DNA of 64,000 nucleotides. Origin: Heterodera schachtii (Eukaryota; Nematoda; Chromadorea; Rhabditida; Heteroderidae). The notes under the pieces were generated by a model, which ran no database searches, had not been told where the DNA came from, and worked only from the letters and a program-made list of their open reading frames with translations. The stretch is from contig SIJG01000050.1 of the NCBI GenBank assembly GCA_023374025.1, positions 697,719 to 761,718 of the forward strand, written 5' to 3'. The position numbers were made by a program, and so were the translations under genes. Below, in pieces: positions 4,734-61,135 of the stretch; position 1 is the stretch's first letter; each line of letters starts with the position of its first letter.

Positions 4734-5145
4734 TATATATCTGCTGTTTATTTTTTACTATTTTTATGTTTTTAATTACCTTAAATAATATTTTTTTATT
4801 TTTAATGCTAAAATCATTCGTTCCGTTTGCCAACACTTTTCCCAGCAAATTGTGATCGGATGGAGCAAAAAAACTCAAAAATTGTCCGATTTGTCCATTC
4901 CCATCCACCGGAAATGGCATTCCATCGGCCGTTTTGGCGATGATTCGGCTTCCCATTTTCGCTTTTTCCCTTTTTTTCATCGCTTTTCCCAGCGATCGAA
5001 CAAAAATTGTGTTTAGGGAGTGTACATTAGTGATGATTTGGCCCTTTTTCCGCTGCTTTTCCTTTTTTCCGCCCCTTTTTTGCTTGTCCATAAATAGGCA
5101 ATGAAAGCCCAGCAAAAGCCACTCATTCTTCATTCATTTGGCAGA
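4734..5145 (+). promoter_or_regulatory. CRM-1 promoter (repeat copy P1)
   Basis: This is one of five near-identical promoter copies. TGGCAT at 4915-4920 is the reverse complement of the ATGCCA dorsal-gland box described for Globodera effector promoters. A TATA-like ATAAATA lies at 5090-5096, about 170 nt downstream. The copy ends in a conserved stretch (aggcaatgaaagcccagcaa and actcattcttcattcattt) likely to hold the transcription start. Minus-strand open frames cross this repeat, but the frame is not kept between copies, so I read it as regulatory. Confidence 0.75.
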
Positions 5146-5223
5146 AGCTCATCTTCCACCGCTGTTCTTCCGTCTCGATAAAACTAATTAAGGCCATTGA
5201 TTGCTAAGAACTTAATATTTTCA

Positions 5224-5365
5224 CAAATTTTAGACAATAAATTGATTGCTGACATTTTGTTTTCGTCCAATCTACCGTAATCCGTCCAACTGCTTCTACC
5301 TTCGTTCTTCAACCAATTTGCCTCTCCCATTCAACCCATCCCATCCACCGTATTCCTCAATCAAA
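5224..5365 (+). repeat. 5' leader shared by CRM-1 and CRM-2
   Basis: This leader is almost identical to 14811-14943 in front of CRM-2 (cgtccaatctaccgtaatcc, then caaccaatttgcctctccc). It follows the promoter repeat and precedes the first donor, so it is probably transcribed 5' UTR duplicated along with the promoter. Confidence 0.65.
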
Positions 5366-5371
5366 GCCGTA

Positions 5372-8300
5372 ATGGTAAGCATATAACGCTTTTTCCGTGG
5401 AATAAAGCTGGCAAACCAAAAACAAAAACAAATTCGAACAAAACTAAAACTGCCAATTTTTTGTTTTTTTTTTTGTCTTTTTTTGACAATTCCGTTCAAG
5501 CAGATGCTGCCGCTTGTTTTTCGTCTTTTGGTCGCTTTGCTGTGCTTTTGCTGCGACGCACATGCATTTCTGTCCATTTTGAAAGACATAAAAGAAGGCG
5601 TCGACATGATTGCCGGAGTTATTATTGAGAGTGTGGAACTAGATACCAGAATCGCGTGCCGTACGGGCCTCACCTGCCGTGGCTGTGGTCATGGTTCGTG
5701 CATTGAAAGCGAGGGTAAAGCGGCCGATTATTGCTGTATGGACAACTTTGAGTATAAGTGTTGCGCAAGTGTAAGTAAATTATTGAACAGCACGCTTGTG
5801 CATGCATGCGCGCACCACGGGAGGGGAGGGGGGGGGGGGACGATGGGAGTAGCTACTGTGGATGAGTTGGGTATGGACGAGCTGGATATGGTGGGTTAAT
5901 TGGGTAAAGATGAGTTGAAATTGAATTTTTTATTTTTTCAATTTTAGTGTTAAAGATCCGCATGTCAGATTGACTCCGTTGAGAATAATTTGTATCTTTT
6001 AAGAGGTTCCTTTTGGAACAAAAAAATTTTTCATTTAAAAAATCTTTGTAAAATCGTTTTGGGGGTTTTTGGTTTTTGAGGTATAACTTTAATATTTGGC
6101 CGAACTAAAAAAAATTCGATTCTGCTTGTCTATCAAATTTTGTTAAGTTTAAAAAAGCTATATGATAATTAAAAAAAGGTTTTTTGAGCATTTTTGGCCA
6201 GAACTTTTGAATAATTTACTAAATTTTTTTGAAATTTTAACAGACTTAATAGAAAACACACCAGGCTTTCAAATAATTCAAATTCAATTTTTTTTTTAAT
6301 TAATTTTTCTAGGCTACTATTAGGAGTTTTCACGGTCGGAGAATCCGATTCTTACATCCATTTCGACTCAATTTGAACCTTGAACCCGAATTCGAACAAA
6401 AACTTGAAACTTCAAATTTTTCTAGTTTCGCATTTTTGGTTCAAAACCGGCTTAAATGTAAGGAAACAAACTAAAAGCCATCAATGATGATTTTTTATGA
6501 GATTTCACGAAATTTGTTGCCTTTAGTCCACTTAATTAAACTTCAATTTTTTTACGTAAAACACGTTATGGATGAAAATAAACGTCAGCTTCGTGAACCC
6601 GTATCAAAAAATAGCCTAGAAAAAATTATAAAAAAAAATTTAAGTGGAGTGACAAAAGCTAGTAGTACCGTGCAACAAACAGTCCATGCACAGGCGGGAG
6701 GCATTTTGTATTGGAAATAAAGCATAATACGCAAAAACTTTTTTAGACTACGACCACCACTCCGACCACTGTTTGAAATATTTTTCATGTTAAATGAATG
6801 TTTTCATGTTTTTTTTGTTTTTGTTTTAAAGCCTCTCCCGGCCGAACTTGGTTTCCAGCAACGATGCCAATATGAGGAATCGAAATGCCCCTGCGGCTGG
6901 GGCGCATGCATTAAACGTCAGGCATGGGTTGGAGGTGGTTGCTGCGGAAAAGGATTTGAGTTCCGCTGTTGTGAATCGGTAATTATCATATGAGCAAGCT
7001 GGTTTTTTTTGATGGGTGAGGGTAAAGAACGAAGGAGGGGCTGAGGCGAGGTGGTCGGGTCGATAGCAGTTCGTACAATGGCGTTTCGTACAATTTGAAA
7101 TGGGAATGACCATAACTTTTTTGTTTGTCGGTTAATTTGTTGAAAATTGGTATCATTCGAAAGCTCTACGTGTTTAGAAGCTATCATTAAGCAGAAATTA
7201 AGCGACTAATCATCTTACCAAAAAGTTATGGTTTATAAGACTTAAAAATTCAAGAAAATCCTAATTTTTTCTAAACTATAAATCATAACTTTTTGGTGAG
7301 ATAATTATCGCTTAGCTTCTGCTTAATGATAGCTTCTAAACACGTAGAGCTTTCGAATGATACCAATTTTGAACAAATTAACCGACAAACAAAAAAGTTA
7401 TGGCCATTCCCATTTCAAAAATTTGAAAATATAATGTTGATTACGACACTCATTTGTTAGGGCTATCGAATCCTACCAAGAACAAAAATTATGTATGACG
7501 CATTAAACCCTTGTGAATTTTAAAAATTGAACAATTCTTTTATAACATTTGGTTCTGATCAAAATGGTGACAATGCCATTCCTTTACGTTATCAGTGATC
7601 ATTTTTAATAATTTTAAATTATTAAAGGAGTCCATCGTTGAATGGGATCGAGCCCGAACGGTAAAGTTTATTTAAAAAAGTATGTTCAAAAAGTACTGTG
7701 TTTTAATTTTTTCCCAAAAGTACCGTACTTTTTGTCTGTTAAATGTGCGTTTGAAATTTCTCTCTCATCATGGCCCTGGGCACACCTAAGTCTGTGTTAA
7801 AATGAACCCTAAATTCAATTGCAGACTGATCTCGTCGAGTACATGAAGGCCAAAGAGGAGTGCGCCGATGTGACTTCCATGTGCATGTGCGGCTTCAGCC
7901 GAGCTGAGGATAAAATCATGGGAATGTGCTGCGACGATGGCTCTTGCCTTTGTTGTGGGAAGGTAGCTTTCAAGCTTAAAAGTGATTTGACCTCAAAAGT
8001 AGAGGGACAACTGTTCAACAAAAAAGCAAAAAATATTCAAAAAAAAAACACTTAAATTAGCATACTTTAGGATTGTTGTAAAAAATGAATAATTATCATT
8101 AATAAGGAATAACAGTGAAAATAGTGCAATGCAATAAAATTTATGTTTGTTGCATAGTAAATTTGCCTAATAAGAATTGGGTTTTAACAAGGCAGGGATG
8201 CTCTCTGACATGCCGAATCCCAACCTTTATCCTTACCAAAACCAAAAATTATCTGGTCCACGAGCCGATTTTTCTTTCATCTCAATCTCAAGCTTTTCCC

Positions 8301-9887
8301 TATCACGAATTCCGACTTTTTTTTTATTGACGAATAGTATTTTGTAGAAAAGGTAAAATATAAAAATATATTTTTGAATTTCACAGGACCCGGCGCTGTT
8401 CAAACTCCCGGACGTATAAATTATAAATAATCTATTCATTTTATATTTAAATGCTTTATAATATTTGAAGGTGCTCCGTGAACACTACGACACCGAAAGT
8501 TGTGCTGAAAAACTGAAATGTACGATTGACAAATCTTCACCGGGTTGCCTGGAAACATTGTCCTGCGTCAACTACTGTGTCTGGGCCGAGGGCTACAAGG
8601 AATCCGAATGTTGCCGCGAAAATTACACTCTTTCTTGCTGGACTTGGGTAAGTTTTAAAAATTGTTGCATGTTTCAGGGATATTCACGCAAAATTTCGCG
8701 CTTTTTGGGCATTTCCCGTTTTGTTTCTATAAGGGTTGCTCCCCGATCCTCAGGTAAAAGAAAGTCGGGGATCGGAGAGAAAATCTTTCATAAAATATAG
8801 AGTTTAAAAAGATAACAAACTTTTAAAACAAAAAAAAAGCCTTCCCTCGCATCGGGTCAGGAAGCCTAATTTATTCAATCAGAATTTTGAAAACGTCAAC
8901 AACAGACATGCATGCCATGGACGAATTTGATGAAATTTTGGTTCAAATTGTTATTTTTTATGCCTTTAATATGGCATGCAACGAACTGCTTTTTGCCCGT
9001 TTTTGTCGAGTTTTGTCAAATTCTTAGTTTAGTAACACAACGGAAAAAGTAGCGGATTTTTGGCTACGAATTTTTTCCACAATTAATCAACAATTTAAAT
9101 TGAAAATTTATATGTTTCAGGCTCCTCGTCCGACGGTGCTCTTTTCTTTACATTGTTTTAAAAAGGAAAAAATAATTTAAAGAAATTAATCCTGTCATCG
9201 GAAGAATGCCAAGATCATTACCAAGTCGCCATGTCTAAGAAGCTTGTGAATGACTTCAACGATGCTGACAAATTCTGCGCTTCGCATGCATACAAAGTGG
9301 AAACATTATAAAAATTATTAATATTCTAATTTGCACAGGTGTCATCCAAATTTGTGAAAACCATTGAGGTACCACTCATTTAAATTTAAATTTTGGGGAA
9401 ATTGGGGGACGTGGGGTTGGTGTTGATAGGCGTCGCACCTTCCGGAAATCAAATCAAAATTAAAAGTTCATATAAAATAAAATGACAAATTTGAGGATCT
9501 TTGCTAAAAAAAAAATCTTTGAGAGAAAAATTACTCGAAATTTCGCATAATTTTTTTTCAAAACAACCACAAACAGAATTATTCACAAAGCTCCCCCCCC
9601 CCCAAAAAAAAATCTGTTCTAAAATATATCCAATGTTTAATAATAAAAAAAGTTATGAACTCGCATCACAAAGGTTCATTAAACAGAATTAAGTTGTTCC
9701 GTTCAAAATTTACAGGCACAGGCAAAGGGCGAAGTCATTGAAAGCTCGGCGCTTTACCTCATTTTCAACGCCAATTACATCTTTGGCTGTTGTATGAATC
9801 ATTTTCGCATTTTTTTAAATACTATTTAATAAATAAATATTTTCCTTGCATTCAGTCGTGTTTTGGGCATATGCCGTCATGTGGTGA
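5372..9887 (+). CDS. CRM-1: modular cysteine-rich secreted protein with hydrophobic tail
   Basis: About 350 aa from 14 exons: ATG 5372-5374, 5504-5770, 6747-6770, 6832-6978, 7628-7660, 7825-7962, 8387-8413, 8471-8647, 9121-9135, 9183-9296, 9339-9368, 9716-9788, 9856-9887 (TGA). An intron may follow the first ATG directly, or translation may start at 5504. Exon 2 has a signal peptide (about 21 residues, ending C-C-D-A-H-A). Four cysteine modules follow: A1 (5504-5770) and A2 (6832-6978), pattern roughly C-x5/6-C..C-x4-C-x10-CC-x6/7-CC; B (7825-7962), C-x6-C-x-C..CC-x4-C-x-CC; C (8471-8647); then a two-cysteine exon D (9183-9296, ends C-A-S-H-A-Y-K). Linkers are tiny exons, e.g. T-T-T-T-T-P-T-T and A-P-R-P-T. 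All introns are phase 0 except the last, phase 1, which splits the hydrophobic tail. The tail suggests a GPI or membrane anchor. Family not recognised; spacing recalls small nematode extracellular modules such as ET, but I cannot assign one. Confidence 0.75.
7087..7430. repeat. foldback (long inverted repeat) in CRM-1 intron
   Basis: Two arms of about 160 nt (about 7096-7255 and 7270-7430) are near-perfect reverse complements. They share the core 'ataacttttttgtttg ... ttggtatcattcgaaagctc' with many other foldback elements in the window. It lies in the intron between exons 6832-6978 and 7628-7660. Confidence 0.7.
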
Positions 9888-9912
9888 TGGGCTGACAATC
9901 GAATGAGGAGAG

Positions 9913-11088: not shown

Positions 11089-11096
11089 ATGATGAC

Positions 11097-14308: not shown

Positions 14309-14745
14309 TCTGCTGTTCATTTTTTTACTATTTTTATGTTTTAATTATATTAAATAATATTTTTATTAATTTTAATGCTAAAATCGTCCGTCCGTTCATT
14401 TGCCAACACTTTTCCCAGCAAATTGTGATCGGATGGGGGCAAAAAAAAAAACTCAAAAATTGTCCGATTTGTCCATTCCCATCCACCGGAAATGGCATTC
14501 CATCGGCCGTTTTGGCGATGATTCGGCTTCCCATTTTCGCTTTTCCCCCCGTTTTCATCGCTTTTGCTTAATTTGCCAACGCTTTTCCCAGCGATCGGAC
14601 AAAAATTGTGCTGGGGCAGTGTAAATGTGTGATGATTTGGCCCCTTTTCCGCTGCTTTTCCTTTTTTCCGCCCCTTTTTGCTTGTCCATAAATAGGCAAT
14701 GAAAGCCCAGCAAAAGCACTCATTTTCATTCATTTGGCAAAACTT
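14309..14745 (+). promoter_or_regulatory. CRM-2 distal promoter (repeat copy P2)
   Basis: Near-identical to the CRM-1 promoter. TGGCAT (DOG box on the other strand) at 14493-14498; ATAAATA at 14688-14694, 190 nt downstream. The shared leader follows at 14811-14943. Confidence 0.75.
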
Positions 14746-14944: not shown

Positions 14945-15062
14945 TGTGATCATTTGACCCTTTTCCACTGTTTTTTTCCTTTTTTTCCACCCCTTTTTTG
15001 TCCGCCCATAAATAGGCAATTAAAGCCCAGAAAAAGCACTCATTCTTCATTCATTTTACAGA
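14945..15062 (+). promoter_or_regulatory. CRM-2 proximal partial promoter (P2b)
   Basis: This is a second, shorter copy of only the proximal promoter (pyrimidine-rich tract, ATAAATA at 15008-15014, aggcaattaaagcccag), directly after the first leader. It lacks the TGGCAT segment. A second leader (15060-15165) ends at an acag|GTAAGT donor. CRM-2 may thus have two start sites, only the distal one with a DOG box. Confidence 0.6.
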
Positions 15063-15237: not shown

Positions 15238-18200
15238 ATGTTCAACCAGCTGTATTTCGTTGTCCATATGCTGCTGTTCACGGAGTAGGGGTTGTTTCGT
15301 CGCCGTCGTTTCGGCACTGGCCAAAGTTTTTCAACTATAACTTTTTTCTTTGTCATCCAAATCCAACAATCTTGGTATCTCATTCGAAAGCCCTTCACGT
15401 GCTCTATTAGCCTTACAAAAAGCGAAAAGATTTCCTAGTCAGCAAAAAATTTATTAAGAAAAAAACTTCAAAATTTTTGACTTTTTTTTTTGCAATTTCA
15501 TGTTATAACTAGAGACCGGACTTTTAGGCACGAAAATTTCTCAAATAGGCACCTAAAAAAGGCACCAAAAATGTGAAAAAAGGCATAAAAAATTACAAAA
15601 ATGGCAAAAAAGGCACGAAAAAATGGAAAAAGGCACCAAATATTCAACATTTTTATAGCAAAAATTTACCCAAGAGACCTTTTTTGGCCAATTTTTTTTT
15701 CTTCGATGTTATATCAACAATTTCATAACCAAAGAAAAAAAGAATTTTTAGCTCAGAAAAAATGACAATTTTTGGGGGTCCCGGCGGTGCCGATAGGCGC
15801 CGCCGGAAAAATTTTTTGGAAATTGTAAGAATACGATAATAAAAAATTGCAAAAAATTAAAAAATTTTCCATTTTTTTCCAAAAATCCTGAAAAAGGCAT
15901 GAAAAAAGGCACCAAAAGGCAAAAAAGACACCAAAATTACGTGCCCGGCATAAGGCACCAAAATCGCAAAAAAGGCAAAAAAAGGCACCAAAAAGTTGAA
16001 GCTAGAAGCTTCAAACCAAGTTAAAAACTCGTTTTTCGTGCATATTAGGCCGTAGCAAGTTAGCAAAAAAAAAAAAGGCATATGCCTCAAAATCCGGTCT
16101 CTAGTTATAACTTTTTGGGTAATTGTATAATCACGAAACAATAAATTAGAAATAGCTTCTAGACACGTTAAGCTCTTGAATGATACCAAGATTGTTGGAT
16201 TTGGTTTTAACGATGAAAAAAATTATTGTCCGAAAACTGGGGCTGGCGCCGAAACGACTCAGACCCTTGACCCTACTGTTCAGCGTCACCGTTTCACGTG
16301 ATTCGAAAGATATCATGAAGTACATTGGAAATAGAATGAGCATCCTCGCATGCAAATATCCACAGCATTGTAAATCGGAGAAATGCAAAAAAGGGGAGAA
16401 GCCCATGTGTGTGAACACAGGAGGTACAAAAGCAATTGACCCTCTTGGCTGTTGCCTCGAAGGATACGAGATTAAATGTTGTGGAATTGTAAGTGGTGTT
16501 ATTTATTTCTTTGCTCATTAGACAGGGGGCAACGGTTTCTTTGGCTGCTCATACAATGGGTAACTCGTACATACATATGTTTTAATTTTAATTAACTATG
16601 CATCTTTCCAACAACAAAAAAAAAACAGAAAAAATTTTTTGTATAGAAACCTTAAAAAGTTTTTGATATTTTGTTTGAGAATTAAATTCATTATGATTTT
16701 TTTAAATTCTAGGTTTTAATTGTTAATATAAAAAAAAATGCATCGAATTGCTCATTGTACCAACTAGAGACCTGCGCGGGCCCGGATCCCGCGCCGGATT
16801 TTGCAGGATACAGTCCGCAGTCCTGCCTTTTTTGGAAAATGCGGGATTTGCAGGACTAATCCTGCCTGCTTCGGTCCTGCAAAAAATTTTGAATTCCAAT
16901 CCCGCAACAGGACCTGCAAATTTGGTTTTTTTGTGCGGGAGCCCGCGTATTCACATTGCAATTTTGAAATTTTAATTTTAAAATTGGCTCAAAATCACAA
17001 AATTTGTTCATTTTTGGTGAAAATCTGTTAACAAATCAAATCGAAAATTACAAAAATTTTCCCCTACGGCGCCTATCGGCACGGCTGGGCCTTTAGTGCA
17101 TTTTTGGCCATTTTGTGGTTGTGCCACTAACTGCCTGTTTAAATATGTTCTAGAAAGCAAACCTCGATTAGCATAAAAAAGAATTTTTTGAAAAATTAAA
17201 GTAATAAATGGAAATTTAGCCCAAATACCGGGCTTTTTTGAATTTTTTTGTTTTAGATCACGACGACTACTCCAACGACAGTATGTTTATTTTTTCAGAT
17301 AATTATTAGTAATGTGCTATTTGGGGATTTAAAAACAATTGCGCCAAAAAATATTAAAGAACCATAAAAGTGAAAAATGGGAAAACCTAAATCATTCCCT
17401 TAACAGGGATCGCGTGGAATTCCGCTTTCCGGAATTTTTGAGGGGTCGGAATCCCATTCCAAAAAATTTCTGAGCCTCGGAATTCAATTTTCCGAAAAAC
17501 TTAGAGACTTCTGAATGCCATCCCTGACCCCTAGTAAAAGCACCATTATTCATTTATTTATTTGAAGCCGCTGCCAAAAGAAATCGCGCTTCATGAGCGC
17601 TGCAAATTCGAAGAGTCAAATTGCCTTTGTGGATGGGGTGCGTGCATCAAAAGGCAGGGATGGGCGGCTGGCGGATGTTGCGATGAAGGATTCGAGTTCC
17701 GCTGCTGCCAATCGGTGTTGAAACTTTGCAAATTAATTTTGTTAATCCACCAGTTAAAAGGTGTGGAGCATGCTAATTAGTTAGGGTTTGCCGTAGAATG
17801 TAAAAAAAAAAAATGAGGTTCGCGTAGCATTCCTGCTACGGGTAGTAATTTTTCGGGCCGTAATTCGAGTCAAAAAAACGAAAATACGGTATTTACCACT
17901 TTAGCCACAGTTCTTTGAAATTAATGAAGTTTTGGAAATGAAAAAATGGTATGATAGTACAGTGGAACGGTGCTAGGTCGTTTCGTAAAATCCGCCACTT
18001 TTGCAATTTTTTCGACAAAACATGTTATAACTTTGTTTAAAGTTGAACAAATTTTACATTCTTGGTATCATTCGATAGCCAAGCTTTTTCTCTATAAGCC
18101 TGCCAAATTTTAAAAAATTTGGTCAACTTTAGAAAAAGTAGTGTGAAAATAAGTACTATTTCTGCCATAACTTTGTTTAAATTTGATAATTTAGTTTGGA

Positions 18201-21200
18201 ATTTTGCAGGCTAATAGAGATAAAGCTTGGCTATCGAATAATACCAATAATGTAAAATCTGGTTAATTTTAAGAAAAGTTATACCATTTTTTGTCGAAAA
18301 AATTGGAAAAGTGGCGGATTTTACGAAACGTCCCAGCACGCAGTGGAACATGTTAAGATAAAACAGAAAACATTTTTAGTCAATTTATTTCAAAAATTGA
18401 GAAAATTATTATTTTTAATAGTGAAGGGGACAAACAAACATTAAACTTCTAAAATATAAAGAAATTTGGCATAATAATTCGGAAAAATATTATGCATATT
18501 TTCCATTTTTCTGCATTAATTATCATGATATTTTTAATTCGTTCACAGGAAAGCATCGTTCAGTGGGAGCGCGTTCGAACGGTAATAATTTTTCTAAGTC
18601 AAAATTTTCATGGGAAATTTTCATTCTCAAAATGTCGGTTTACAGTACACATTTTTCTAAAATGACAGACCGATCTGGTGAAGTACATGCAGGCTAAGGA
18701 TGAGTGCAAGGACACGCAGCAGATGTGTTTGTGCGGGTTCGAAAAGGTTAACCATTACATCATGGGTGTTTGCTGCGATGACGGCGCTTGCCTTTGTTGC
18801 CGGAAGGTAAGTGATTTGACCATGTTTTGGCTTGGTCGATTTTGAATATGAAAAAGAGCTGGGAAGCCTTTGAGTGAAAAACTGTGGGGCGGGCCGGCTT
18901 TGAACCGGCTTCTCTGGCTATCTGGACCAGTGTTTTACCAGCTGAACTACCGACCCTACCTTCTCCGGCTTCCCAATTCTAATCACGATGGGACGAGACA
19001 TTTCTTAAATTCCTCCACGAGACAATAGGATAAAAAAATAATCATAAAATTATTTGAAGTCTACCAAATTTAAAAGTTCGGCATTCTCTAGAACCTAATT
19101 CCTAAAACCTATAAACATTAAGCTAATTTTGGGCATACAGTTCAAGCATGGTTTGACTTTAGTAGTCCCAGTGGTATGTCAGATGTCCAACAAAAATGGG
19201 GGTACATAATTAAGTGTCACTCACCTTTTCTTAAGTCAGACAACTACCGTATTTTTTATAAAATTTCTTCTAAAAATGAAAAAAATATATATAAATGTTT
19301 TCAGGACAAAGCTTTGTTCAAACTGCCTGAGGTACACTATTCAGTGCATCCAAAAATGTCGCCGATAGTTAACAAAATTTAAGTCTTCTTAGTACTGTCA
19401 GTAGCTTTTATTTACTCAAAATTTAAAAAAAAAATTAAGGTTTTAAAATTTATGGCAAAATATTCGAAACCTTTTCGAGTTTTTTTTTTTTGATCATAAT
19501 TTTTTGTTTGTTTGTTTGTAAATAACGGCGACATTTCGGCAAACAGCCGGCGGCGTTTTTGTCTTGCTCCGACAAATAATGCATCCATTTTTTGGGAATT
19601 TTTTTACATATTCATAATCAAGGTGCTACTGACAACAAACAACTCAACCGAGTGCCAAGGTGACATGGTGTGCAGAAACCACATGGGTGAGGACAAGACC
19701 TGCTTGGACACGTTTTCATGCACTTCGTATTGCGTGTGGAGTGAGGGCTTCAAGGCGACGCCTTGTTGTAAAGAAAACTACACCGCCATTTGTTGGGAAT
19801 GGGTATATATATATGCATATATTTTACAAACTAAATAATATTATTATAACATACATATTTTTAAATCGACTAGATCAGAGTAGGGGATAGGAGCCGAATG
19901 TATTTAAAAAAATATGAAATAGGAATTTAAAAAATTTAAGGACATTTTTCTGAAAGTTCAAGAATCGCAATATAAAAAAAAGCAAAACTGTTTTCAGAAC
20001 ATTTTTTGTCTATAATTTCGTTGAAACGAAAGCTAAAATTTTTTGAAACTTTTGTAAACAAATGGAAAAACTCAGGACAATCGAATTATTCAAATTAATT
20101 AGTTGTAAAAAATAATCAAAGAAGATATACATAAAAAAGGGCTGTCGCCCTTTTGTAGAATTTTATTTTATTTAAAAAATAATAATTTAATTTTTGAGAA
20201 TTATTTCTTTTTCTCATCGCAAACTACATAAGCAAACAAAAACTGTCAATTTATTGAGAAAAATTTATGGAGAGTGAAAAAAAATTCTCAAAACACGAAA
20301 AATATGATTAATTTTCACCTACATATAAAATAAAATAAAAATGAAAAATAATATAAATTATATATATATAATTTTTTTTAAGGCTCCGCGCCCTACGGTA
20401 AGTTTTTGTTCATTATGCAGATCGGGTTTTTACCTAAAAATTCAAAAAATAGAAAAATATAAAAAGCAATCTGTCATGTTATAGAATATGTTTGTAGTGC
20501 TTGCTAGCTATTTCTAAAATTTTGGATGAAAAAAAATTGGAATTTTCATTTCCAGCAATAAAATTTGTGCTAAACGATCAGTTCGTAAACGATCCGTAAT
20601 TTTTTAGAAATAATTAAAAAAATTGTATTTACTAATTAGAAGCTGCTTCTGTCAACCCAAAAGTGTTTCGATAAGCCGGAAGTTATAGCTTCATTGGAAC
20701 GGGCGCTTGACTACAACAAAAAAACGGATTCCTACTGTGCTTCACACGCATACATGGTTGTAAAAAAAAATGAGTTTTTGTGACCCAATCACACAGAAGG
20801 AGTCAGTGAAACTTTGGTTGTATGTTGGATTTGCTAATGATACCGAAATTAAGAGATTTGACACTTGCAAACAAATTAAAGGGTGAAAGAATTCAAGAAA
20901 AAATTTGCTATTAAATGAAGACCAAAAATGCCAATTTTTTATGAGCTTTTCTTGGGTCCGGCTGAAAATGACTCCTCATGCTAGGTTTTAATTGTAATAG
21001 CGCGCTTTTCATCTGAATTTAGATTCCGGATACGTTTTTGAATACCATCAAGGTAAATAAATTTCTGTTTAACAAACAAATTGCTGACAGAAAATCGGTG
21101 ATTTTTTTTAGGAACTTGCCGGAGAGGTGGTTGCTGGTTCCGTTCGTGTCGCCGTCACTCCGCACATTACCACTTTTTTGTGTTTCAGTAATAAATTTTG

Positions 21201-43888: not shown

Positions 43889-46800
43889 ATGTATACCATT
43901 TGCATGGCACATTTCGTCTTCCTTGCCGTCGTCATCGTCCACTTCTCTGAGCCAGCTTCTCGTCAGGTAAACAATTTTTTTTTAATCATATAATAAAATT
44001 ATATCCAAATTAAGAAATCGACTTTGAAACCTGTGTTTTATGAATACCAATTGGAACGCATTCCACTTGTATAATTTTTTTTCCCCAATTTTTTTAATAT
44101 TTTGTTTGGTACTAATGCACTTTACCCGACATAATTTTTTTTTTTGTCTAAATTCATGTAAATTAGCTACCGGGGGTTTTCAGCATCGCTGATTAAGAAT
44201 CTGGCGTTCATTCCAACTAAATTCCATACACCAGAACCCGAAATCGAACTTTGGGTCGAACATAGAAAATTTTCAAAGTCCTATTCAAAAAAAAGTTCAA
44301 CAAGATGCAATAGTGAAAAATCAATGAAAAAACAATGCTCGCATGGATACAATTCTGTGACTTGAGACCAAAAATTAAAAAAGACAGACTCAAAGTCTCC
44401 AAACTGTTTTCGCCAGAAGTTCCGTGATTTATTTGTTATACAGCGCACGAGAAATGTTGAAAACCCCCGGAAACTATTTTACATGAATTTAGACAAAAAA
44501 AATAAATTATGTTTGGTAAAGTGCATTAATAGCTTTTGTTTTTTGTTGCCTATTTTATTACATTTTACGATTTGAACACCACACAGGACAGAATGATCAG
44601 CGAAATGCTTGACATGGAAAAGGGATGCACCGAGGAAACGTATTGCTTCTGCGATTTTTTTCATGATGGGAAAGGGAAACTATTAATGGCAAGGGGAATG
44701 TGTTGTGGCTACGATAGGCTCTGCCGATGTTGCGATACGGTGGGTTGGTTGCTCATCATCATACAGCGCTAGGTCGAAGGACAAAAAGTGCAAAATTTTT
44801 GCTAAATTTTTTGACTAAATCCACACACATAACTTTTCTCAGACGCAATCAAATTGCGCACAATCTTGGTATCATACGATAGCACTAAGAATTCTCTATT
44901 AGCCTGCCAAATTTCAAAAAATTTTATTAAGTTTCAAAAAATTTATGGCCAAAAAGGTTTGGAAAACCAACTTTTTGAAATTTTCTGGCCACAAATTTTG
45001 AAACTTAAAGAAATTTTTTGAAATTTTGCAGACTAATAGAGGATTCTTAGGACTATCGAATGAAACTAAGAATGTTTAATTTGGATGCTTTTTAAAAAAG
45101 TTGTGGTTCACTAAACTTGCAAAAAATTTTATGGTCGTGTCTTTTTTTTATGGTCGTGTGAACTGCAATAGAGCCCCAATTTGCACAATCTTGGTATCAT
45201 AGGACGATAGCCCATGAATCACTTTATTAGCTTTTTCAAAATTTTTTTTTATTAAGTTTTACAAAAGTTATGACAATTTTTCCAGCTTTTTTTGGCTATA
45301 ACTTTTGAAAAACATGATAAATTTTTTTGAAATTTAACATGCTAATAAAGCAATTCAAGGGTTACCGTATGATACCAAGATTGTGCAATTTGGTTGTGTC
45401 TGAAAAAAAGTTATGAGTTGCTTTAGTCAAAATTTAAGCAAATTTTACACTTTTTTAAAAAAGGTGCATTTTTTCAGAACCCACTGTTTGCTGGAATGCC
45501 AAATGTATTGTGTGTGTCCTCCAATTTAGCCTAATTAATGTTTTACCGATTCTTTCTGGCAGATAACACTTAAAGGACACATTTATACCGAAGAATGCAA
45601 GATTGAGGACAAAGAAGCCAACTATGGTAAAAATTGGTGTCTATGTCGATTCCTAAAAAAAAAATGCAAAAATGAGCAACAAAAAGTGCAAAATCAGACA
45701 TCTGTTTTTTTTTTGTATGAATTTTTAAAATTGATTATTAGAGCTCGTATTTTGAGGCATATGCCTCGGTATGTTAAGCATAAATAACACACATTTAAAA
45801 AAAAATTTATTAATAAACCTACATTTAATTTGCTAATAAAACTTTTCAAAATGACAATTTAAATATGGACTTTAATTAACAATTATTTTAATTAGCAATA
45901 ATTTTTTTTCTAAAAATGAGGTAAATTTTGCTTAATTTAACAGTTTAGTTGTTTAGCAACCGAAAGATACACCTGTGCTCGTTCTGTGGAACCCGTTCCG
46001 GAGACTGCCTGTTGTGAGAAGAACTACATTCCTAAACTTAGTACTCGTCATTTCAGTGGAGAAGCGGTATGCCGCAATTTTTTTTAAAAAATTTAAGATA
46101 ACGGCTAGATTTGGCATAATGCATTTTGAAAGATATTTATTAGGGATTCTGTAGAACATAAAAGGTGACTCGCCCGGTGGGACTCGAACCCACCACCCAG
46201 CAATCCGCGCCGTGCTCTAACCAACTGGGCTACGGGCGCTCCTTTTAGCGGTTCTCCCATGTCCTTTATCCCACTTTCTCCCACACTCCGTTCCTTCTGG
46301 CATCACAATTCAATTCACATGCACGAAGTTTAAAAATACACTTTTTATTAGCCCCAAAAAAAGGAAGCCGCCCCTAATATAAAATTGTAATCCTGTGCGA
46401 TGTTTTTGATGTTTTCATACAGCAAACGCTACATATTTTGGTACTTTTCGATAAAACTGGCGCATAATTTTTCTTGGTATCAACCTGGTTTCAACATTTT
46501 TGGTACTTCTCGATAAAACTGGCAAAAGTTTCAACATTTTTGGTACTTCTCGATAAAACTGGCAAAAGTTTCAACATTTTTGGTACTTTTCGATAAAACT
46601 GGCACATAATTTTTTTTGGTATCAACCTAGTAGTTTCAACATTTTTGGTACTTTTCGATAAAACTGGCACATAATTTTCTTGGTATCAACCTAGTTTCAA
46701 CATTTATCATCATCATCATGCATTAACACAACTATTTTTTTTTTGTTTAAAGCGAATGTTCCGTGAGTCGAGACAGCGTAGCTGCGATCAGCCGAACGAA

Positions 46801-48756
46801 ATTATAATTGCTCTACCATCCGGCCCAGACGGCCTCCAGAAGACCTTCGAAAAGTCCCTTAATGAATATGAAGCTTTGTGCATTAAGGACAGTGCTGAAT
46901 TTTTGGTTATTTGAATAATTCTTTTATATGTAATTATAAATAATACATTTTGTCACAGGTTCCACGCGCTAAAATCGGGCAAATCACTTATGTAAGAGAA
47001 CAAAAAAAATTTTTTTTTACATATATTTACAAAATTTATTATTATATTAATTTTTTATTTGATTTTTTCTATAATAGCAATGATTTTCTGAAAACCAAAA
47101 CCATTTTTAGGAGGAAAGTAGTGTGTGTGTGTGTATTAGAAGAAATAAACGGTTTCATTGAAAATTAATTATTTTAAATGTTTATAGGACCCGATTGACT
47201 CTCCAACCACGCCAGCTACGACGACGGTATGTCATTTATTCAACATTATTATTAAATTTTAACGGGAGAGAGAGAGAGAGAATTAGGCTACGCTAATTGA
47301 ATTAGCGTAGCCAGTGGGTCTGAGGATGTAATAGCCCCTCCCACCCACACCCGAAACTGAAAAATGAAAAATTTTAATGAAATAAGAAATTTTCTGAAAA
47401 GGTATATTTTTGTTCTTAGTAATTTCATTAAAAATTTCAAAATTTCCGCTTGGCAATGTATTCATTCATTGCCAGACCCAAAATCCCTATAAAATTTTCA
47501 AAATTTCACTCAAAAATCGCCAATTTGATGAAAATTTGTTATAAAAAGTCGGCCGGTCAGAAATTCAAAAATCGGCACCGCCGTGCCCTACCCTTCAAAA
47601 AATAGAAGAAGAAGCCGATGAACAAAAAAAGATCGTCGCTGGAGAGCGGAGGGGGCGGGGGGGGGGGGGGTAGCCACCCCGGCGCCCGGAAAATGCGTCA
47701 GTGAAACTATAAAACCAAGTTCCTTGGGTTTGGGAGGTCGCTGATCACGAATTGAACATACATTTTGGCCCACTCCGAACACCGGACCCGAATTCGAACA
47801 AAAGGTCGAAAGTTCAAATTTTCAAATTTTGCATTTTTGGTTAAGAAACGGCATAAATGTTCTTTATTTGAAGGATTGATGATTTTTAGTTTGTTTCCGT
47901 GTACGTAAACCGATTTTTAAGAAAAAACCTAATTTCGAAAATTTAGACTTTTCGGCTTTTTGTTCGAGTTCTGGTCCGGGGTTCGAAATGCAGAACGATG
48001 TTTTTATAGAAGTTTATTTCCATATTACAATACTAATGCCATAGAACTTTATTTTAAAATATTTGTATCACTGACCGATTTTCCACTGACCGATTTTCCG
48101 GTCACGGCCACCCCGCCCCGCCGGAAGTCAGCTACGCGCCCTTAATTAATGCATCTTTAAATTCCATTTAGCCTCCAAGCAAGGCATTTCGTGTTACTGT
48201 CTCGTCGTATGCCGCCGCTTCTTTCATCCGTAATAATTAACAACCGATTTTTAGTTGCATTTTTTTGATTCATCTTGGTCTAAAACGTATTGAAAAATAT
48301 TTTTAGTTTATTCTATTTAGTTAATTGCTGTTTTTCATTTTAAAGTCCCAACTAAAAGCGTACATTTTGCATATTTTGGCGTTTTTCAAAAAACTCCTTA
48401 AAATAAAATAAATCAAAAAATTCACCCACTAAGATTGACTTTTCCAAGTTTTCAAATGTACATCAGTCGGAAAATTAACTTTTTTTTATTAACTCAAATT
48501 TTCAGCCAAAAAAATTGTCACAAAAATATTTATAATATAATTTCCGATGAATTTTATGTAAAAGAAAACAAATATTAATACTGGTACAATTTTTTCACAC
48601 CACTTAGATTTGAATTTTTTGGAGGTTTTTGGTGCATAAAAAAATCGCATCCCATTAGTATTTTCCAATGTGTGTTAACAATTAAAGAAAAAATTTTCAG
48701 TGATGGTGAGTGTGCTTCTGCAATTCTTGCTCAGTCATTTCTATGGCGACGAATGA
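43889..48756 (+). CDS. CRM-4: reduced modular cysteine-rich secreted protein
   Basis: Exons: 43889-43966 (signal peptide, after a tttcag acceptor), 44587-44739, 45563-45626, 45957-46066, 46753-46905, 46959-46991, 47188-47226, 48172-48229, 48701-48756 (TGA), about 245 aa. The signal exon (hydrophobic core H-F-V-F-L-A-V-V-I-V) leads straight to a B module; no A module is found. Module C is split by an extra phase-1 intron at 45627-45956. Exon D, a short linker, a Thr/Pro linker (D-P-I-D-S-P-T-T-P-A-T-T-T) and the tail follow. The tail reads S-S-Y-A-A-A-S-F-I then M-V-S-V-L-L-Q-F-L-L, split by the phase-1 intron seen in all five genes. If the last donor is ignored, the frame reads only to TAA at 48238-48240; the two-exon tail matches the paralogues better. 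Confidence 0.7.
44111..44531. mobile_element. inverted-repeat element in CRM-4 intron 1
   Basis: The arms read actaatgcactttaccc.. and ..ggtaaagtgcattaatag, followed inward by taaattcatgtaaa and its complement and ccgggggttttc and its complement. Flanks ttttgtttg and ttttgtttt are nearly the same. Boundaries approximate. Confidence 0.6.
44790..45440. repeat. two adjacent foldbacks in CRM-4 intron
   Basis: Hairpins at about 44840-45110 and about 45180-45425, each with the 'aatcttggtatcatacgat ... gactatcgaatgaaactaag' type arms of the common foldback family. Confidence 0.55.
46170..46239 (-). tRNA. tRNA-like sequence, probably pseudogene or SINE head
   Basis: The minus strand has A-box-like TAGCCCAGTTGGTTAGAGCA, B-box GGTTCGAGTCC and a T-arm GTGGG-TTCGAGT-CCCAC, with acceptor halves GCGCCCG/CGGGCGA. 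The anticodon arm does not pair well, so a functional tRNA is unlikely. Located in a CRM-4 intron. Confidence 0.45.
46436..46702. repeat. short tandem repeat in CRM-4 intron
   Basis: Five irregular copies of 'tttttggtacttttcgataa aactggca..' separated by 'ttggtatcaacctag' spacers. Confidence 0.65.
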
Positions 48757-56589: not shown

Positions 56590-57000
56590 AATATTACTAA
56601 TTTTTTGATGCTCAAATTATCGATTCCGTTTTCATTTGCCAACACTTTTTCCAAACGATTGGTCGGAAAATGAATAAAATAATTTGTACGGAATATTATG
56701 TTAATGAGAAAAATTGTCCAATTTGTCCATTTCCATCCACCGGAAATGGCATTCCATCGGTTCATTTTGGCGATGATTCGGCTTCCCATTTTCGCTTTTC
56801 CCCCATTTTTTAAATTATCGCTTTTGCTCAATTTGCCAACGTTTTTCCCAGCGATCGGACAAAAATTGTGTGTGCTTATGGAGTGTTAATTTGTGATGAT
56901 TTGTCCACTTTTTCTGATGCTTTTCCCATTTTCCCGCCCCTTTTTTGTGTGTCCATAAAAGGGCAATGAAAGCGCAGCAAAAAACATTCATTTCTCATTC
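56590..57000 (+). promoter_or_regulatory. CRM-5 promoter (repeat copy P5)
   Basis: The most divergent of the five copies. It keeps the ccaccggaaatggcattcca block with TGGCAT at 56747-56752, and a TATA-like ATAAAAG at 56955-56961, then gggcaatgaaagcgcagcaa. Confidence 0.7.
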
Positions 57001-57212
57001 ACTAATCTTTTTTTCATCCCATCATTTAGCTGAACCTTCATTTACTTTCTTAATTTATCCAATCTCATCTCACTTTGCCTTCATCCAACACAAAAAAATG
57101 TTAGTTAAAATTAAATAATTAGCGTTTAAATTAATAAATAAATAGCGTTTAAAAATATATTTTTTAATAATAATTAAAACTAAACAAAAATTCAAAATTT
57201 AGAACTCCAAAA

Positions 57213-60200
57213 ATGGTCCTCCTCCGCTCCATGCATTTTCATCCATCTGTTTTTGCCCAGCTGCTGCTGCAGCTGCTGGTGGTGTGCCTGCTCAGTTTGC
57301 CGAAACCCGGACATTGTATGTAGTAATATTACTGTATATCAAAAAAGAATTTTTTTTTGTTTTTTTTTGTAAAAAATGGGTTTTTTATTTTTATTTTTCT
57401 AATCATTTTTTTAAACTTTTCATTTTTCAAATGCCTTTAGTATTAAAGTGCAAACATCGCCAGGAAAGTGAGGGAAACAAATTTCTCACTGATGGAGTGG
57501 AAGACTGCGGAAATGACTTATCTTGGAGATGTTGTGCATCTTTCTGCACAGCTGGTGAAGAGGAAAAAAATTTTTTTTAACAAAATAATTTTTTTTTTTT
57601 TTTTGGAGGGGTCATGTAGAGAAATTCAGGAAAAATTTTTAAATTTTTTGGGGGGGGGGGGTTTCTAGTTTGGGTACACCCCAAAATCTTGCCGCCCGAA
57701 ATCTCGCCGAAACAAAATCTCGCCGCCCAAAATCTCGCCGCAGAAATTTCAAAAATTTTTTTTCACACTTAGAAATTTTGCAAGGAAAAATTATTTGAAA
57801 ATTATTTTTCGCTAAAAAATTATAATAATCATTTTCCGTTTTTAAAAACTGACCAATTAGGTGATTTTCTCGTTAAAGTACTCACAATTTCTATTTATTT
57901 TTCGGCGGCGAGATTTTGTCGCGCTAGATTTCGGGCGGCGAGATTTTGTCGCGCTAGATTTCGGGCGGCGAGATTTTGTCGCGCTAGATTTCGGGCGGCA
58001 AGATTTTGTCGCGCTAGATTTCGGGCGGCGAGATTTTGTCGTGGCGAGATTTCGGGCGGCGAGATTTTGTCGCGGCGAGATTTCGGGCGGCGAGATTTTG
58101 TCGCGGCGAGATTTCGGGCGGCGAGATTTTGTCGCGCTAGATTTCGGGCGGCGAGATTTTGTCGTGGCGAGATTTCGGGCGGCGAGATTTTGTCGCGCTA
58201 GATTTCGGGCGGCGAGATTTTGTCGCGGCGAGATTTCGGGCGGCGAGATTTTGTCGTGGCGAGATTTCGGGCGGCGAGATTTTGTCGTGGCGAGATTTCG
58301 GGCGGCGAGATTTTGTCGCGCTAAATTTCGGGCGGCGAGATTTTGTCGCGGCGAGATTTCGGGCGGCGAGATTTTGTCGTGGCGAGATTTCGGGCGGCGA
58401 GATTTTGTCGCGGCGAGATTTCGGGCGGCGAGATTTTGTCGCGCTAGATTTCGGGCGGCGAGATTTTGTCGTGGCGAGATTTCGGGCGGCGAGATTTTGT
58501 CGCGCTAGATTTCGGGCGGCGAGATTTTGTCGTGGCGAGATTTCGGGCGGCGAGATTTTGTCGCGCTAGATTTCGGGCGGCGAGATTTTGTCGCGCTAGA
58601 TTTCGGGCGGCGAGATTTTGTCGCGCTAAATTTCGGGCGGCGAGATTTTGTCGCGGCGAGATTTCGGGCGGCGAGATTTTGTCGTGGCGAGATTTCGGGC
58701 GGCGAGATTTTGTCGCGGCGAGATTTCGGGCGGCGAGATTTTGTCGCGCTAGATTTCGGGCGGCGAGATTTTGTCGTGGCGAGATTTCGGGCGGCGAGAT
58801 TTTGTCGCGCTAGATTTCGGGCGGCGAGATTTTGTCGTGGCGAGATTTCGGGCGGCGAGATTTTGTCGCGCTAGATTTCGGGCGGCGAGATTTTGTCGCG
58901 GCGAGATTTCGGGCGGCGAGATTTTGTCGCGCTAGATTTCGGGCGGCGAGATTTTGTCGCGGCGAGATTTCGGGCGGCGAGTTTTAGTCGTTGCGAGATT
59001 TCGGGCGGCGAAATTTTGTCGTTGCGAGATTTCGGGCGGCGAAATTTTGTCGTGGCGAGATTTCGGGCGGCGAGCTTTTGTCCCGTCTCCCGCTAGTTTC
59101 AACTCGAGAAAAATCCCGGAGCGGAGGTGAGGGTAGGGATCTCGAGTGTCACCATGAAACAAAAATTTGGGAGAGTTTAAATATGAAAACAATTTTCAGG
59201 CGATTTCATGTGGAATGAGTGGACATGTCTTCTATCCAGTGGAAATTCCGACAAGGACGAAGCAAATTGTGTCATGGAGCAATCTTACATTGACACTGAG
59301 CGTGCCAAATTTGACCTTCCCAAGGCCGACCGCAATTGGACGTGCACGTGCCAATTGGGCGCCCTTTATGGGGAGATGGGCAACGCGAACATTGTGAACC
59401 CAAATCCGGCATTGAGGCCCACGCGTAAGGACAACAGGGAATGCCAAGCGAGCAGACGGAATAAAATTTTTCAAGGACGTGGACTTTAAAATAGGTTTTA
59501 CAGTGAAATAGTAAAATTTTGTTTCCAAGAACACGGAGAGAAAAATTCGTTTTCAAGGACACGGAGAGAAAAATTCGTTTTCAAGGGCATACATGGACTG
59601 TAAAATTAGTTTTCAAGGACACGGAGAGTAAAATGTGTTTTCCATGGAAATGGACAGTAAAATTATGTTTCCAAGAACACGGAGAGAAAAATTCGTCTTC
59701 AAGGACACGGAGAGTTAAATTCGTTTTCAAAGACATGTACTGTAAAATTCGTTTTCAAGGACATGGACTGTCAGTTTTTTTTGCAGGGGCCCAGATGATT
59801 GATTCTGTTTGGTCCCCGTCTACGGCGGAGGGCTAACCCAAAATTTTACTCAGACTTTGTCAATTTTCAAGTACACGGGTTCTCCAAAAAGATGGAGAAC
59901 AAAAATTTTCAAGGACAAGCAGACTTTTTTTCAAGGACTAGAATTTTCAAATTTTAGCAAAAATGAAGTGCAAATACCGCATTGAATCGGAGGATGTCGA
60001 ACTCAATGAAAAGCAGAACACGAAGGAAGAAAAAGAATGCGAAAACAACGAAATGAAATGTGGCTTGGCGCTCTGCAAAGCGAACGATAGTAAAAATTTA
60101 AAATTATTATTTTACCAAGAATTAATTCGGCAGAAAAAAAAATACAAGTCTAGACTAACCTTGAAAAATTTTATGCTCCAGAAAAATTCCCGTGTTTTTT

Positions 60201-61135
60201 TTAAGTTTATTGGCAAATTTTTTTTTTTGTAAAAATTCTTGAATAACAAAATGCCAATAATTTTTACCCACATTCAAATGCCATTTTTTGTCACCAATTT
60301 AAGGTGAATTGGTGTTTAACCATTGGTCATGTTTCCCGGCTGATTTGAAGAAAAAGGCGTGTGCCAAAGATGCAGCGAATCGCACGAATGAAATACGTGC
60401 CAAATGGGGCGCTAATAAGTTGGCGAATGCCACCACTGATTGGAAGTGCCGGTGCCGTTTTGGTGCCAACGGGACGGACATGGGCAATGCCAAATTTGTG
60501 CCGTCGTCGGCGCCAGTGCCGAGTGAGTTGAGGGGGGGGGGGGGGGGGGTGGAAAAATGCGGCATAGTGTTATTCAAGGACGCGCGAAAGGGATTTTCAA
60601 GGACAGACGCTAAAATAACAATTCCCGAGTTTTTAAAAAATCCGGGCCATAATTTATTTAATTTTTCAACGACAGATAGGGAATTTTTCAAGGACCAAAT
60701 CATTTCAAGGACGACACAGAAATTTAAAAAAATTTAGCGAATGTTCGTCACGGCAATGGAGGAATGGCATTGGTGGTGGTTGGGCTCATCCTTGGTAAAT
60801 TTAATGATTGTAATTAAAATAAATAATTAAAAAATTTAATTAAAATAAATAATTAAAAAATTTAATTAAAATAAATAGGTTTTTCGCGTATTAAAAAATA
60901 TAAATACATTTTCTCGAAGGATGTAAATTTTTTTCCAAAAACCTCAATTTTATGAATTTAAAAAGAAAAAACTTTTATAATTTTTAATTATTTTTTCAAG
61001 GAAAAGTAAACAAAAAAAAATTTTTATTGCAAAAAATAAGTTTTAAGCAATTTCTCAACCGAATTGTGAGATTATAATTAAAAATTTTAAGCTTTTTTGC
61101 CGCTTTTCCATGCCGTGCCTCTGAAGAACTGCTGA
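57213..61135 (+). CDS. CRM-5: secreted protein with duplicated two-exon cysteine modules
   Basis: Exons: 57213-57315 (signal peptide, core L-L-L-Q-L-L-V-V-C-L-L), 57441-57554, 59200-59424, 59958-60089, 60304-60522, 60738-60794, 61092-61135 (TGA), about 300 aa. All introns are phase 1. Module E (57441-57554; again 59958-60089) starts K-C-K-x-R-x-E-S-E. Module F (59200-59424; again 60304-60522) has W-x-C, a central C, then W-x-C-x-C and M-G-N-A. The E-F pair is thus duplicated in tandem. The C-terminus reads G-N-G-G-M-A-L-V-V-V-G-L-I-L followed by F-L-P-L-F, split by a phase-1 intron as in the other CRM genes. Modules E and F do not align with A-D, so the link to CRM-1 to CRM-4 rests on promoter, tail and intron phase. 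Intron 2 holds a large minisatellite. Confidence 0.7.
57903..59092. repeat. 30/31-bp minisatellite, about 39 copies, in CRM-5 intron 2
   Basis: Units alternate between 'gattttgtcgcgctagattt' (30 bp) and 'gattttgtcgtggcgagatt' or 'gtcgcggcgagatt' (31 bp), joined by 'cgggcggcga'. The long arginine-rich frames are repeat artefacts. Inverted single units lie just upstream at about 57680-57740. Confidence 0.85.
59480..59960. repeat. ttttcaaggacacggagag repeat in CRM-5 intron
   Basis: About twelve irregular copies of 'ttttcaaggacacggagag..aaaattcg'. The same 'tttcaaggac' motif occurs in the next introns (60560-60720) and in the 24.1 and 52.9 kb elements. Confidence 0.6.

What the first reader, a model, noticed from the sequence alone, without database searches (positions are those of the whole stretch)
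4734..61135. A cluster of five same-strand, modular cysteine-rich genes under near-identical promoters
CRM-1 to CRM-5 share a ~350-400 bp promoter, a signal peptide, cysteine modules on separate exons, and a hydrophobic C-terminus split by a phase-1 intron. CRM-1 and CRM-2 match exon by exon. CRM-3 and CRM-4 keep modules B, C and D but have lost others. CRM-5 has different modules behind the same promoter and tail. I know of no described family with this layout; that novelty is inference.
Basis: partly seen in the sequence, partly recalled or inferred. Interest (0 to 1): 0.9.

Follow-up and report, generated by a model that had tools for sequence, protein, structure and literature searches.

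The report
Secreted-protein genes sharing one travelling promoter
In what looks like a beet cyst nematode genome, unrelated families of secreted, cysteine-rich proteins sit behind copies of the same control DNA, and that control DNA appears to have been passed between genes and kept similar while the proteins themselves drifted far apart.

Summary
The cluster is real, but it is not one family and not unique. Five same-strand promoter copies are present (CRM-1 to 4: 93-98% identical; CRM-5: 83-85%). CRM-1 is a well-supported 12-exon gene: in a paralogue on contig C21, 11 exons could be compared and most changes are synonymous, except in a fast-evolving first module. CRM-2's other 11 exons match CRM-1's, but its first coding exon is interrupted by a ~1 kb nested repeat element. 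CRM-4 lacks the A/B module. CRM-5 belongs to another family (phase-1 exons, other modules). The promoter family has at least 48 places on 21 contigs; 11 of 29 CRM-5-type modules, but 3 of 48 8-cysteine modules, lie just downstream of one. CRM-1 to 4-type promoters form one group (88/86) among CRM-5-type promoters. The two C21 promoters pair with each other rather than with those of their C50 counterparts (AU p 0.0017, 0.0127), while coding third positions are 20-54% identical. Best reading: promoter capture, then concerted evolution, as described for Hessian fly salivary genes. No Pfam or PDB relative was found; expression and host role are untested. The assembly is a plant-parasitic nematode, by size H. 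schachtii rather than Globodera.

The parts
4820..5150 (+). CRM-1 promoter core (type A); CATAAATA box at 5089
5504..5770 (+). CRM-1 exon 1: signal-peptide-like start + 8-Cys module A
   Evidence: fast-evolving versus C21 paralogue
6747..6770 (+). CRM-1 Thr/Pro micro-exon
6832..6978 (+). CRM-1 8-Cys module B (0 nonsynonymous, 5 synonymous changes to C21 copy)
7628..7660 (+). CRM-1 micro-exon x1
7825..7962 (+). CRM-1 module C
8387..8413 (+). CRM-1 micro-exon x2
8471..8647 (+). CRM-1 module D
9121..9135 (+). CRM-1 micro-exon x3
9183..9296 (+). CRM-1 module E
9339..9368 (+). CRM-1 micro-exon x4
9716..9788 (+). CRM-1 tail exon T1, ends in phase 1
   Evidence: 24 codons identical to C21 copy
9856..9887 (+). 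CRM-1 last exon with stop
14390..14740 (+). CRM-2 promoter core
14945..15056 (+). second, partial promoter copy in front of CRM-2; a like partial copy lies next to the C21 promoter
15281..16282 (.). nested repeat element interrupting the first coding exon of CRM-2 (borders approximate)
16312..16488 (+). CRM-2 module A (downstream part of the interrupted exon)
17257..17280 (+). CRM-2 Thr/Pro micro-exon
17568..17714 (+). CRM-2 module B
18549..18581 (+). CRM-2 micro-exon x1
18669..18806 (+). CRM-2 module C
19305..19331 (+). CRM-2 micro-exon x2
19623..19802 (+). CRM-2 module D
20383..20397 (+). CRM-2 micro-exon x3
20640..20756 (+). CRM-2 module E
21023..21052 (+). CRM-2 micro-exon x4
21112..21187 (+). 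CRM-2 tail exon T1
21625..21671 (+). CRM-2 last exon with stop
33931..34290 (+). CRM-3 promoter core; the block shared with CRM-4 (about 33889-34531) is about 650 bp, 92% identical
34658..34900 (+). CRM-3 exon 1: signal-peptide-like start + A-type module
34969..35004 (+). CRM-3 micro-exon x1
35426..35569 (+). CRM-3 module C
35663..35689 (+). CRM-3 micro-exon x2
35776..35931 (+). CRM-3 D-like exon, degraded
36083..36226 (+). CRM-3 E-like exon; gene end not found
43161..43510 (+). CRM-4 promoter core
43889..43966 (+). CRM-4 signal-peptide-like exon
44587..44739 (+). CRM-4 module C (no A/B module found in this gene)
45563..45625 (+). CRM-4 possible exon D1 (not found in the C171 copy)
45944..46066 (+). 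CRM-4 D-like exon
46753..46905 (+). CRM-4 module E
46959..46991 (+). CRM-4 micro-exon x4 (identical in the C171 copy)
47188..47226 (+). CRM-4 Thr/Pro micro-exon
48172..48240 (+). CRM-4 last exon
56626..57010 (+). CRM-5 promoter (type A, 83-85% identical to the others)
57213..57315 (+). CRM-5 signal-peptide-like exon, ends in phase 1
57441..57554 (+). CRM-5 family-II a module, first unit
59200..59424 (+). CRM-5 family-II b module, first unit
59958..60089 (+). CRM-5 family-II a module, second unit
   Evidence: read by eye from the sequence (the anchor search missed it)
60304..60522 (+). CRM-5 family-II b module, second unit (50 matches in the genome, 29 at E<=1e-3)
60738..60794 (+). CRM-5 hydrophobic tail exon
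61092..61135 (+). CRM-5 last exon with stop
   Evidence: read by eye from the sequence

Best explanation
The five promoters are copies of one TATA-type promoter family whose usual recognised partner is family II (CRM-5 type: phase-1 a/b modules). An ancestor of CRM-1 to CRM-4, from an unrelated 8-cysteine, phase-0 exon family, captured that promoter once. Since then promoters of neighbouring genes have been homogenised, most likely by gene conversion over tracts of about 350-650 bp ending in front of the coding exons, while coding modules diverged far. The effect would be to keep several different secreted, disulfide-rich proteins under one expression programme. The proteins are predicted extracellular, with a variable first module (A), constrained modules B to E and, in CRM-1, 2 and 5, a hydrophobic tail; they most likely act at the parasite-host interface. 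Shown here: promoter homology, its distribution, its tree, and exon-wise substitution counts. Inferred: conversion as the mechanism, co-expression, tissue and host role.
For: Promoter family: 38 places and 40 places (40 of 45 candidates scored), 48 distinct on 21 contigs, a lower bound. Same strand and within 10 kb downstream of a promoter: 11 of 29 family-II b modules against 3 of 48 8-Cys modules at E<=1e-3, the three being CRM-1, CRM-2 and the CRM-1 copy (Fisher p 0.0014, but places are not independent). Tree of 23 promoters: 7 family-I promoters on one side of a branch (88/86), inside the type-A group (100/100) with 6 family-II promoters; the other 10 (type B) are 5 family II and 5 unresolved (partner families). 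Tree of 12 type-A promoters: the two C21 promoters pair (99/96) although they drive a CRM-1-like and a CRM-2-like gene; CRM-1 + its C21 copy is rejected (p-AU 0.0017), CRM-2 + its C21 copy too (p-AU 0.0127). Coding third-position identity is 36-54% for CRM-1/CRM-2 and 41-47% for CRM-3/CRM-4 (about 26% expected at random), against 93.2% and 97.7% in the promoters. Substitutions, CRM-1 against C21 copy: total Ka 0.071, Ks 0.205; B exon Ka 0, Ks 0.167; A exon Ka 0.221, Ks 0.280.
Against: The C50 family-I promoters as one clade is neither shown nor rejected (p-AU 0.455) and CRM-4 + its C171 copy is not rejected (p-AU 0.183), so grouping by location is seen clearly only for the C21 pair. The AU groups came from coding relationships, but I had already seen the first tree. 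The family-I group has 88/86, below the starred level, and the direction of capture depends on rooting between types A and B. 27 of 48 promoter places have neither a b nor an 8-Cys match within 10 kb (two of these are CRM-3 and CRM-4), so the usual partner is known for only part of them. No transcript data. The dorsal-gland motif ATGCCA occurs once in each type-A promoter, but by descent at one aligned site in 12 of 13, against 0.33 per 345 bp in the rest of the window, so it says little on tissue. A tethering tail would argue against free secretion into the host.
Confidence: 0.6

Rival explanations
1. Ordinary tandem duplication of one ancestral gene: all five inherited the promoter together, strong functional constraint kept it, and the coding parts diverged fast.
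For: CRM-1 and CRM-2 do match exon by exon after the first exon; promoters hold conserved boxes such as TTTGCCAAC, a CATAAA box and a GTGATGATTT block in most of the 26 rows aligned.
Against: CRM-5 b modules show no profile similarity to the 8-Cys modules (probability 0.2%) and CRM-5 has a different exon phase. Constraint alone does not make the two C21 promoters pair against their genes. The shared block, about 650 bp at 92% in CRM-3/CRM-4, runs beyond the aligned core.
Confidence: 0.25
2. The promoter-like block is itself a dispersed repeat that lands near genes by chance.
For: It is found on 21 contigs, and three aligned copies (L021, L025, L026) keep only the upstream half, with no module seen behind them.
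Against: 48 places were found (a lower bound), whereas a true repeat element of this window gave 5193 first-look candidates. 11 of 29 family-II modules lie just downstream on the same strand (about 0.13% expected for a random place). A CATAAA box is kept in 20 of the 23 copies used for the tree or more distant relatives' equivalents (19 of 23 with the exact letters upstream of the start region are listed; L020 and L037 lack it).
Confidence: 0.1
3. The products are nematode surface (GPI-anchored or membrane) proteins, not host-directed secretions.
For: Hydrophobic C-terminal exons in CRM-1, CRM-2 and CRM-5, with a signal-like start in CRM-1 and CRM-5; the CRM-1 T1 tail exon is identical in the C21 copy.
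Against: CRM-4 lacks such a tail as read. No GPI predictor was run and I have no localisation data.
Confidence: 0.35

Closest known systems
Hessian fly small secreted salivary gland protein genes (SSSGP-1; PMC2955719, passages seen)
   Same: A cluster of secreted-protein genes of a plant parasite in which promoters are conserved and mature coding regions highly diversified; the authors discuss short-tract homogenisation and report that likeness of promoter went with likeness of expression.
   Different: There UTRs, the signal-peptide region and an intron are conserved too, and the cluster is one family. Here the promoter is shared by two families with different exon phases, on 21 contigs, and the signal-peptide-like starts of CRM-1, 3, 4 and 5 do not look alike (by eye).
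Cyst-nematode dorsal-gland effector genes with DOG box ATGCCA (PMC10946958 and PMC11309470, passages)
   Same: Predicted secreted proteins of a cyst nematode; one ATGCCA-type motif at an aligned site in 12 of 13 type-A promoters.
   Different: The motif is absent from 10 of 10 type-B promoters; gland expression unknown; hydrophobic tails in some genes.
Glutathione-synthetase-like effectors (PMC5919673, passages)
   Same: Existing genes acquired new promoter elements and a signal peptide and so became effectors.
   Different: There copies of a short motif were gained; here a promoter of several hundred bases appears to have been acquired.

Membership tests
Cyst-nematode gland effectors | N-terminal secretion signal | tested here: met
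   Hydropathy only, in CRM-1, 3, 4, 5; CRM-2's first coding exon is interrupted
Cyst-nematode gland effectors | No membrane anchor | tested here: inconclusive
   Hydrophobic C-terminal exons in CRM-1, 2, 5; not in CRM-4 as read; CRM-3 tail not found
Cyst-nematode gland effectors | DOG box enriched in promoter | tested here: inconclusive
   One in each of 13 type-A promoters, 12 at one site shared by descent, against 0.33 per 345 bp in the rest of the window; 0 of 10 type-B promoters
Cyst-nematode gland effectors | Expression in pharyngeal gland cells | not testable with these tools
   No expression data held
Curated cysteine-rich domains of Pfam | Profile match above cut-off | tested here: not met
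   0 of 19 exon proteins above a curated cut-off (three sub-threshold hits, E 0.056-0.17); of 31 aligned modules one hit, PF12192, E 0.0071
Hessian-fly-like concerted promoter evolution | Promoter more alike than coding synonymous sites between paralogues | tested here: met
   93.2-97.7% promoter identity against 20-54% third-position identity in 14 exon comparisons of CRM-1 to 4
Hessian-fly-like concerted promoter evolution | Promoter tree disagrees with coding relationships | tested here: met
   p-AU 0.0017 and 0.0127 for the CRM-1 and CRM-2 pairs; not for the CRM-4 pair, 0.183

The most novel reading that the evidence does not exclude
The promoter behaves as a transferable cassette: by capture and repeated conversion it recruits unrelated secreted-protein families into one expression programme, and so is a route by which cyst nematodes add proteins to a parasitism regulon, including members of an exon-shuffled 8-cysteine domain family (48 module places at E<=1e-3) for which I found no curated model.
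Probability: 0.35. Interest if true: 0.8.

Novelty: new variant of a known kind. Interest (0 to 1): 0.6.

Why it matters
How plant-parasitic nematodes bring new genes under gland or parasitism-stage control is open; [quoted passage not shown] A whole promoter that spans unrelated secreted families gives a defined sequence whose regulator and tissue can be tested directly, and a handle for finding further co-regulated genes. The promoter/coding decoupling also warns that promoter similarity here does not mean gene kinship.

Tried and rejected
Known-domain routes: Pfam on 19 exon proteins gave nothing above a curated cut-off, and the 31 aligned 8-Cys modules gave one hit to one member (PF12192, E 0.0071). 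PDB sequence searches: the D module alone touched fungal defensins at E 0.38 but its profile found nothing; the 8-Cys profile gave E 0.75 at best; C and family-II b profiles gave none. The 5.8-billion protein search with the 8-Cys alignment gave 6 candidates and no hit at E<=0.01; it is length-limited and may hold few nematode proteins, so it does not show rarity; CRM-5 modules were not searched there. AlphaFold of module B reached mean pLDDT 66, Foldseek PDB one match at E 6.0, and family-II b pLDDT 44 (not searched): both uninformative. DOG box as tissue evidence was set aside (my first background of 0.44 per 345 bp included a satellite holding 19 of the motifs). Homology of modules: D resembles the 8-Cys profile over its second half (hhalign probability 89%); C does not (7.7%); family-II b does not (0.2%). 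Allelic copies were rejected: CRM-1 and its C21 copy differ at Ks 0.2 and by roughly 20% in longer aligned stretches.\n\nSlips corrected: and in the first promoter alignment minus-strand loci were read in the wrong direction; redone. In one search several C21 exon borders were misplaced by my offsets; one search showed AG before x2 and GT after B and D, and the printed stretch shows GT after exon A; the acceptors of B and D were judged from the offset bases only. In one search the C171 exons were read without gaps, so D2 and E run through a stop there after or before an indel. Literature: 9 of 10 searches used; eight on this question listed no paper that by title or start of abstract describes these families or this promoter; I saw passages of six papers and read none whole. 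Only openly licensed PubMed Central papers are covered; supplements could not be opened.\n\n


Full report
SETTING. The window is contig C50:697719-761718 of an assembly of 178.5 Mb in 356 contigs. Exact spliced-leader-type matches (27; pattern recalled) and pectate-lyase matches (27, none in 14 control genomes) mark a plant-parasitic nematode. Size fits Heterodera schachtii (179 Mb, 395 scaffolds for strain Bonn in PMC11817004, passages) better than Globodera (113 Mb for G. pallida D383 in PMC10946958, passage). The species is inferred, not shown.

GENES. Reading exons by GT-AG borders gives CRM-1 12 coding exons, phase 0 up to the tail, which is split in phase 1. CRM-2 has the same series from the Thr/Pro micro-exon onwards (11 exons). 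A CRM-1 paralogue lies on contig C21. Exon by exon, most changes are synonymous outside exon A: total Ka 0.071, Ks 0.205; module B has 0 nonsynonymous and 5 synonymous changes, micro-exon x1 0 and 3, tail T1 none at all (86 of 89 codons of exon A, 8 of 9 of x2; last exon not compared; no significance test). Without exon A the same counts give about Ka 0.027, Ks 0.18 (my arithmetic). Exon A, which carries the signal-like start and the first 8-Cys module, has Ka 0.221, Ks 0.280. So the gene model is supported by evolution, and the first module is the variable part. CRM-4 has a paralogue on C171 with recognisable signal exon, C, D2, E, x4 and tail (D1 not found, the Thr exon keeps only part of its match, and the ungapped readings of D2 and E hold a stop beside an indel).

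CORRECTIONS. CRM-2's first coding exon is cut by about 1 kb of nested repeat with inverted arms, whose inner part matches many places in the genome. The corresponding C21 exon is uninterrupted, but no B, C or D match was found behind it. CRM-2 is therefore probably not a normal gene in this assembly, unless the insert is spliced out, which I could not test. I found no A/B module in CRM-4. CRM-5 is built from phase-1 exons in two a+b units and its b modules have no profile similarity to the 8-Cys modules.

THE MODULES ARE COMMON. Module B matched 63 places (21 at E<=1e-3) and a relative on C6 matched 76 (39 at E<=1e-3); together 48 distinct places on 19 contigs at that level. I aligned 31 modules, seven of them from the C50 and C21 clusters: six cysteines are invariant and two more nearly so, in the order C, C-x(1-2)-C, C, CC, CC. 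Long arrays stand on C6, C56 and C23. The C and D modules matched 4 and 10 places. The b module of CRM-5 matched 50 places, 29 at E<=1e-3. No Pfam model reached its cut-off on the exons tested.

THE PROMOTER IS SHARED BY UNRELATED FAMILIES. A 198-base piece of the CRM-3 promoter matched 38 places, and a distant relative from C89 matched 40 (45 candidates, 40 scored); together 48 places on 21 contigs, remnants included. Reorienting and aligning 26 of them shows common blocks (TTTGCCAAC...TTTTCCCAGC, GTGTTAATTTGTGATGATTT, a CATAAA box, a CATTC-rich start region) and two types: type A with a GGAAATGGCATTCCATCGG block, type B without it. Strictly counted (E<=1e-3, same strand, within 10 kb downstream), 11 of 29 b modules and 3 of 48 8-Cys modules follow a promoter place; the three are CRM-1, CRM-2 and the CRM-1 copy on C21. 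With the loose sets, on either strand and side, it is 20 of 50 and 5 of 91 within 10 kb. Modules of one gene and recent duplicates are not independent. 27 of 48 promoter places have no b or 8-Cys match within 10 kb (two are CRM-3 and CRM-4); for some of these I read an a module or only a signal-peptide-like start, for others nothing, so other partner genes are possible.

TREES. For 23 promoters (three truncated copies, L021, L025 and L026, left out of the 26 aligned) the seven family-I promoters (CRM-1 to 4 and three paralogues) form one side of a branch (88/86), within the type-A group (100/100) that also holds six family-II promoters; the ten type-B promoters are five family-II and five unresolved. 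Family II was assigned by an a or b module, in one case (L032) by a weak b match (E 0.043) and my reading. The simplest reading is one capture of a family-II promoter by family I. In a tree of 12 of the 13 type-A promoters (the long-branched L031 left out) the two C21 promoters pair (99/96), though their genes are counterparts of CRM-1 and CRM-2; holding CRM-1 with its copy is rejected (p-AU 0.0017), CRM-2 with its copy too (0.0127); CRM-4 with its copy is not rejected (0.183), and the four C50 promoters as a clade is undecided (0.455). Coding third positions between the cluster genes are 20-54% identical in 14 exon comparisons (about 26% at random) while promoters are 93-98% identical. Hence promoters look younger than the coding divergence and, for the C21 pair, follow location: concerted evolution. 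Gene conversion is the usual mechanism (established knowledge); it was not observed directly.

FUNCTION. Predicted extracellular, disulfide-rich, modular proteins; the variable A module on a constrained remainder suggests a recognition surface (inference). Tissue is unknown. The DOG-box motif helps little. The Hessian fly salivary genes (PMC2955719, passages) are the nearest described case I met of conserved promoters with diverged secreted products, and there promoter likeness went with likeness of expression; I expect the same here but could not test it.

VERDICT. Observation partly confirmed; the unit of interest is the promoter family rather than the five genes.

Noticed in passing
15281-16282: Nested repeat element in CRM-2's first coding exon; inner element about 600 bp with tens of copies elsewhere (54 matches, self included; 40 of 5193 candidates scored).
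   Followed up: partly
3904-4000: Promoter-like remnant upstream of CRM-1 with no gene of its own seen.
   Followed up: no
57900-59082: 31-bp GC-rich tandem array, about 39 copies, inside a CRM-5 intron.
   Followed up: no
53734-55499: 118-bp satellite with higher-order 352/469-bp periods; it holds 19 ATGCCA-type motifs.
   Followed up: no
26460-26801 and 27253-27618: MULE transposase fragments on opposite strands (Pfam PF10551, E 1.3e-6 and 4e-10).
   Followed up: no
18884-18956 and 46169-46239: Two tRNA-Ser genes on the minus strand, inside introns of CRM-2 and CRM-4.
   Followed up: no
51965-52321 (minus): Small ORF with a hydrophobic stretch near its start and a cysteine-rich C-terminal part; weak, sub-threshold match to carboxypeptidase inhibitor I68 (E 0.022).
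   Followed up: no
3134-3641 and 51055-51560: Two stretches 88-93% identical, 48 kb apart.
   Followed up: no
L042, L052, L044-L045: Genes elsewhere with many consecutive 8-Cys modules on separate exons, some on opposite strands of one contig.
   Followed up: partly
L033, L034: Two C57 promoter copies 6.5 kb apart with like downstream reading frames and no recognised module; part of L033 reads N.
   Followed up: no
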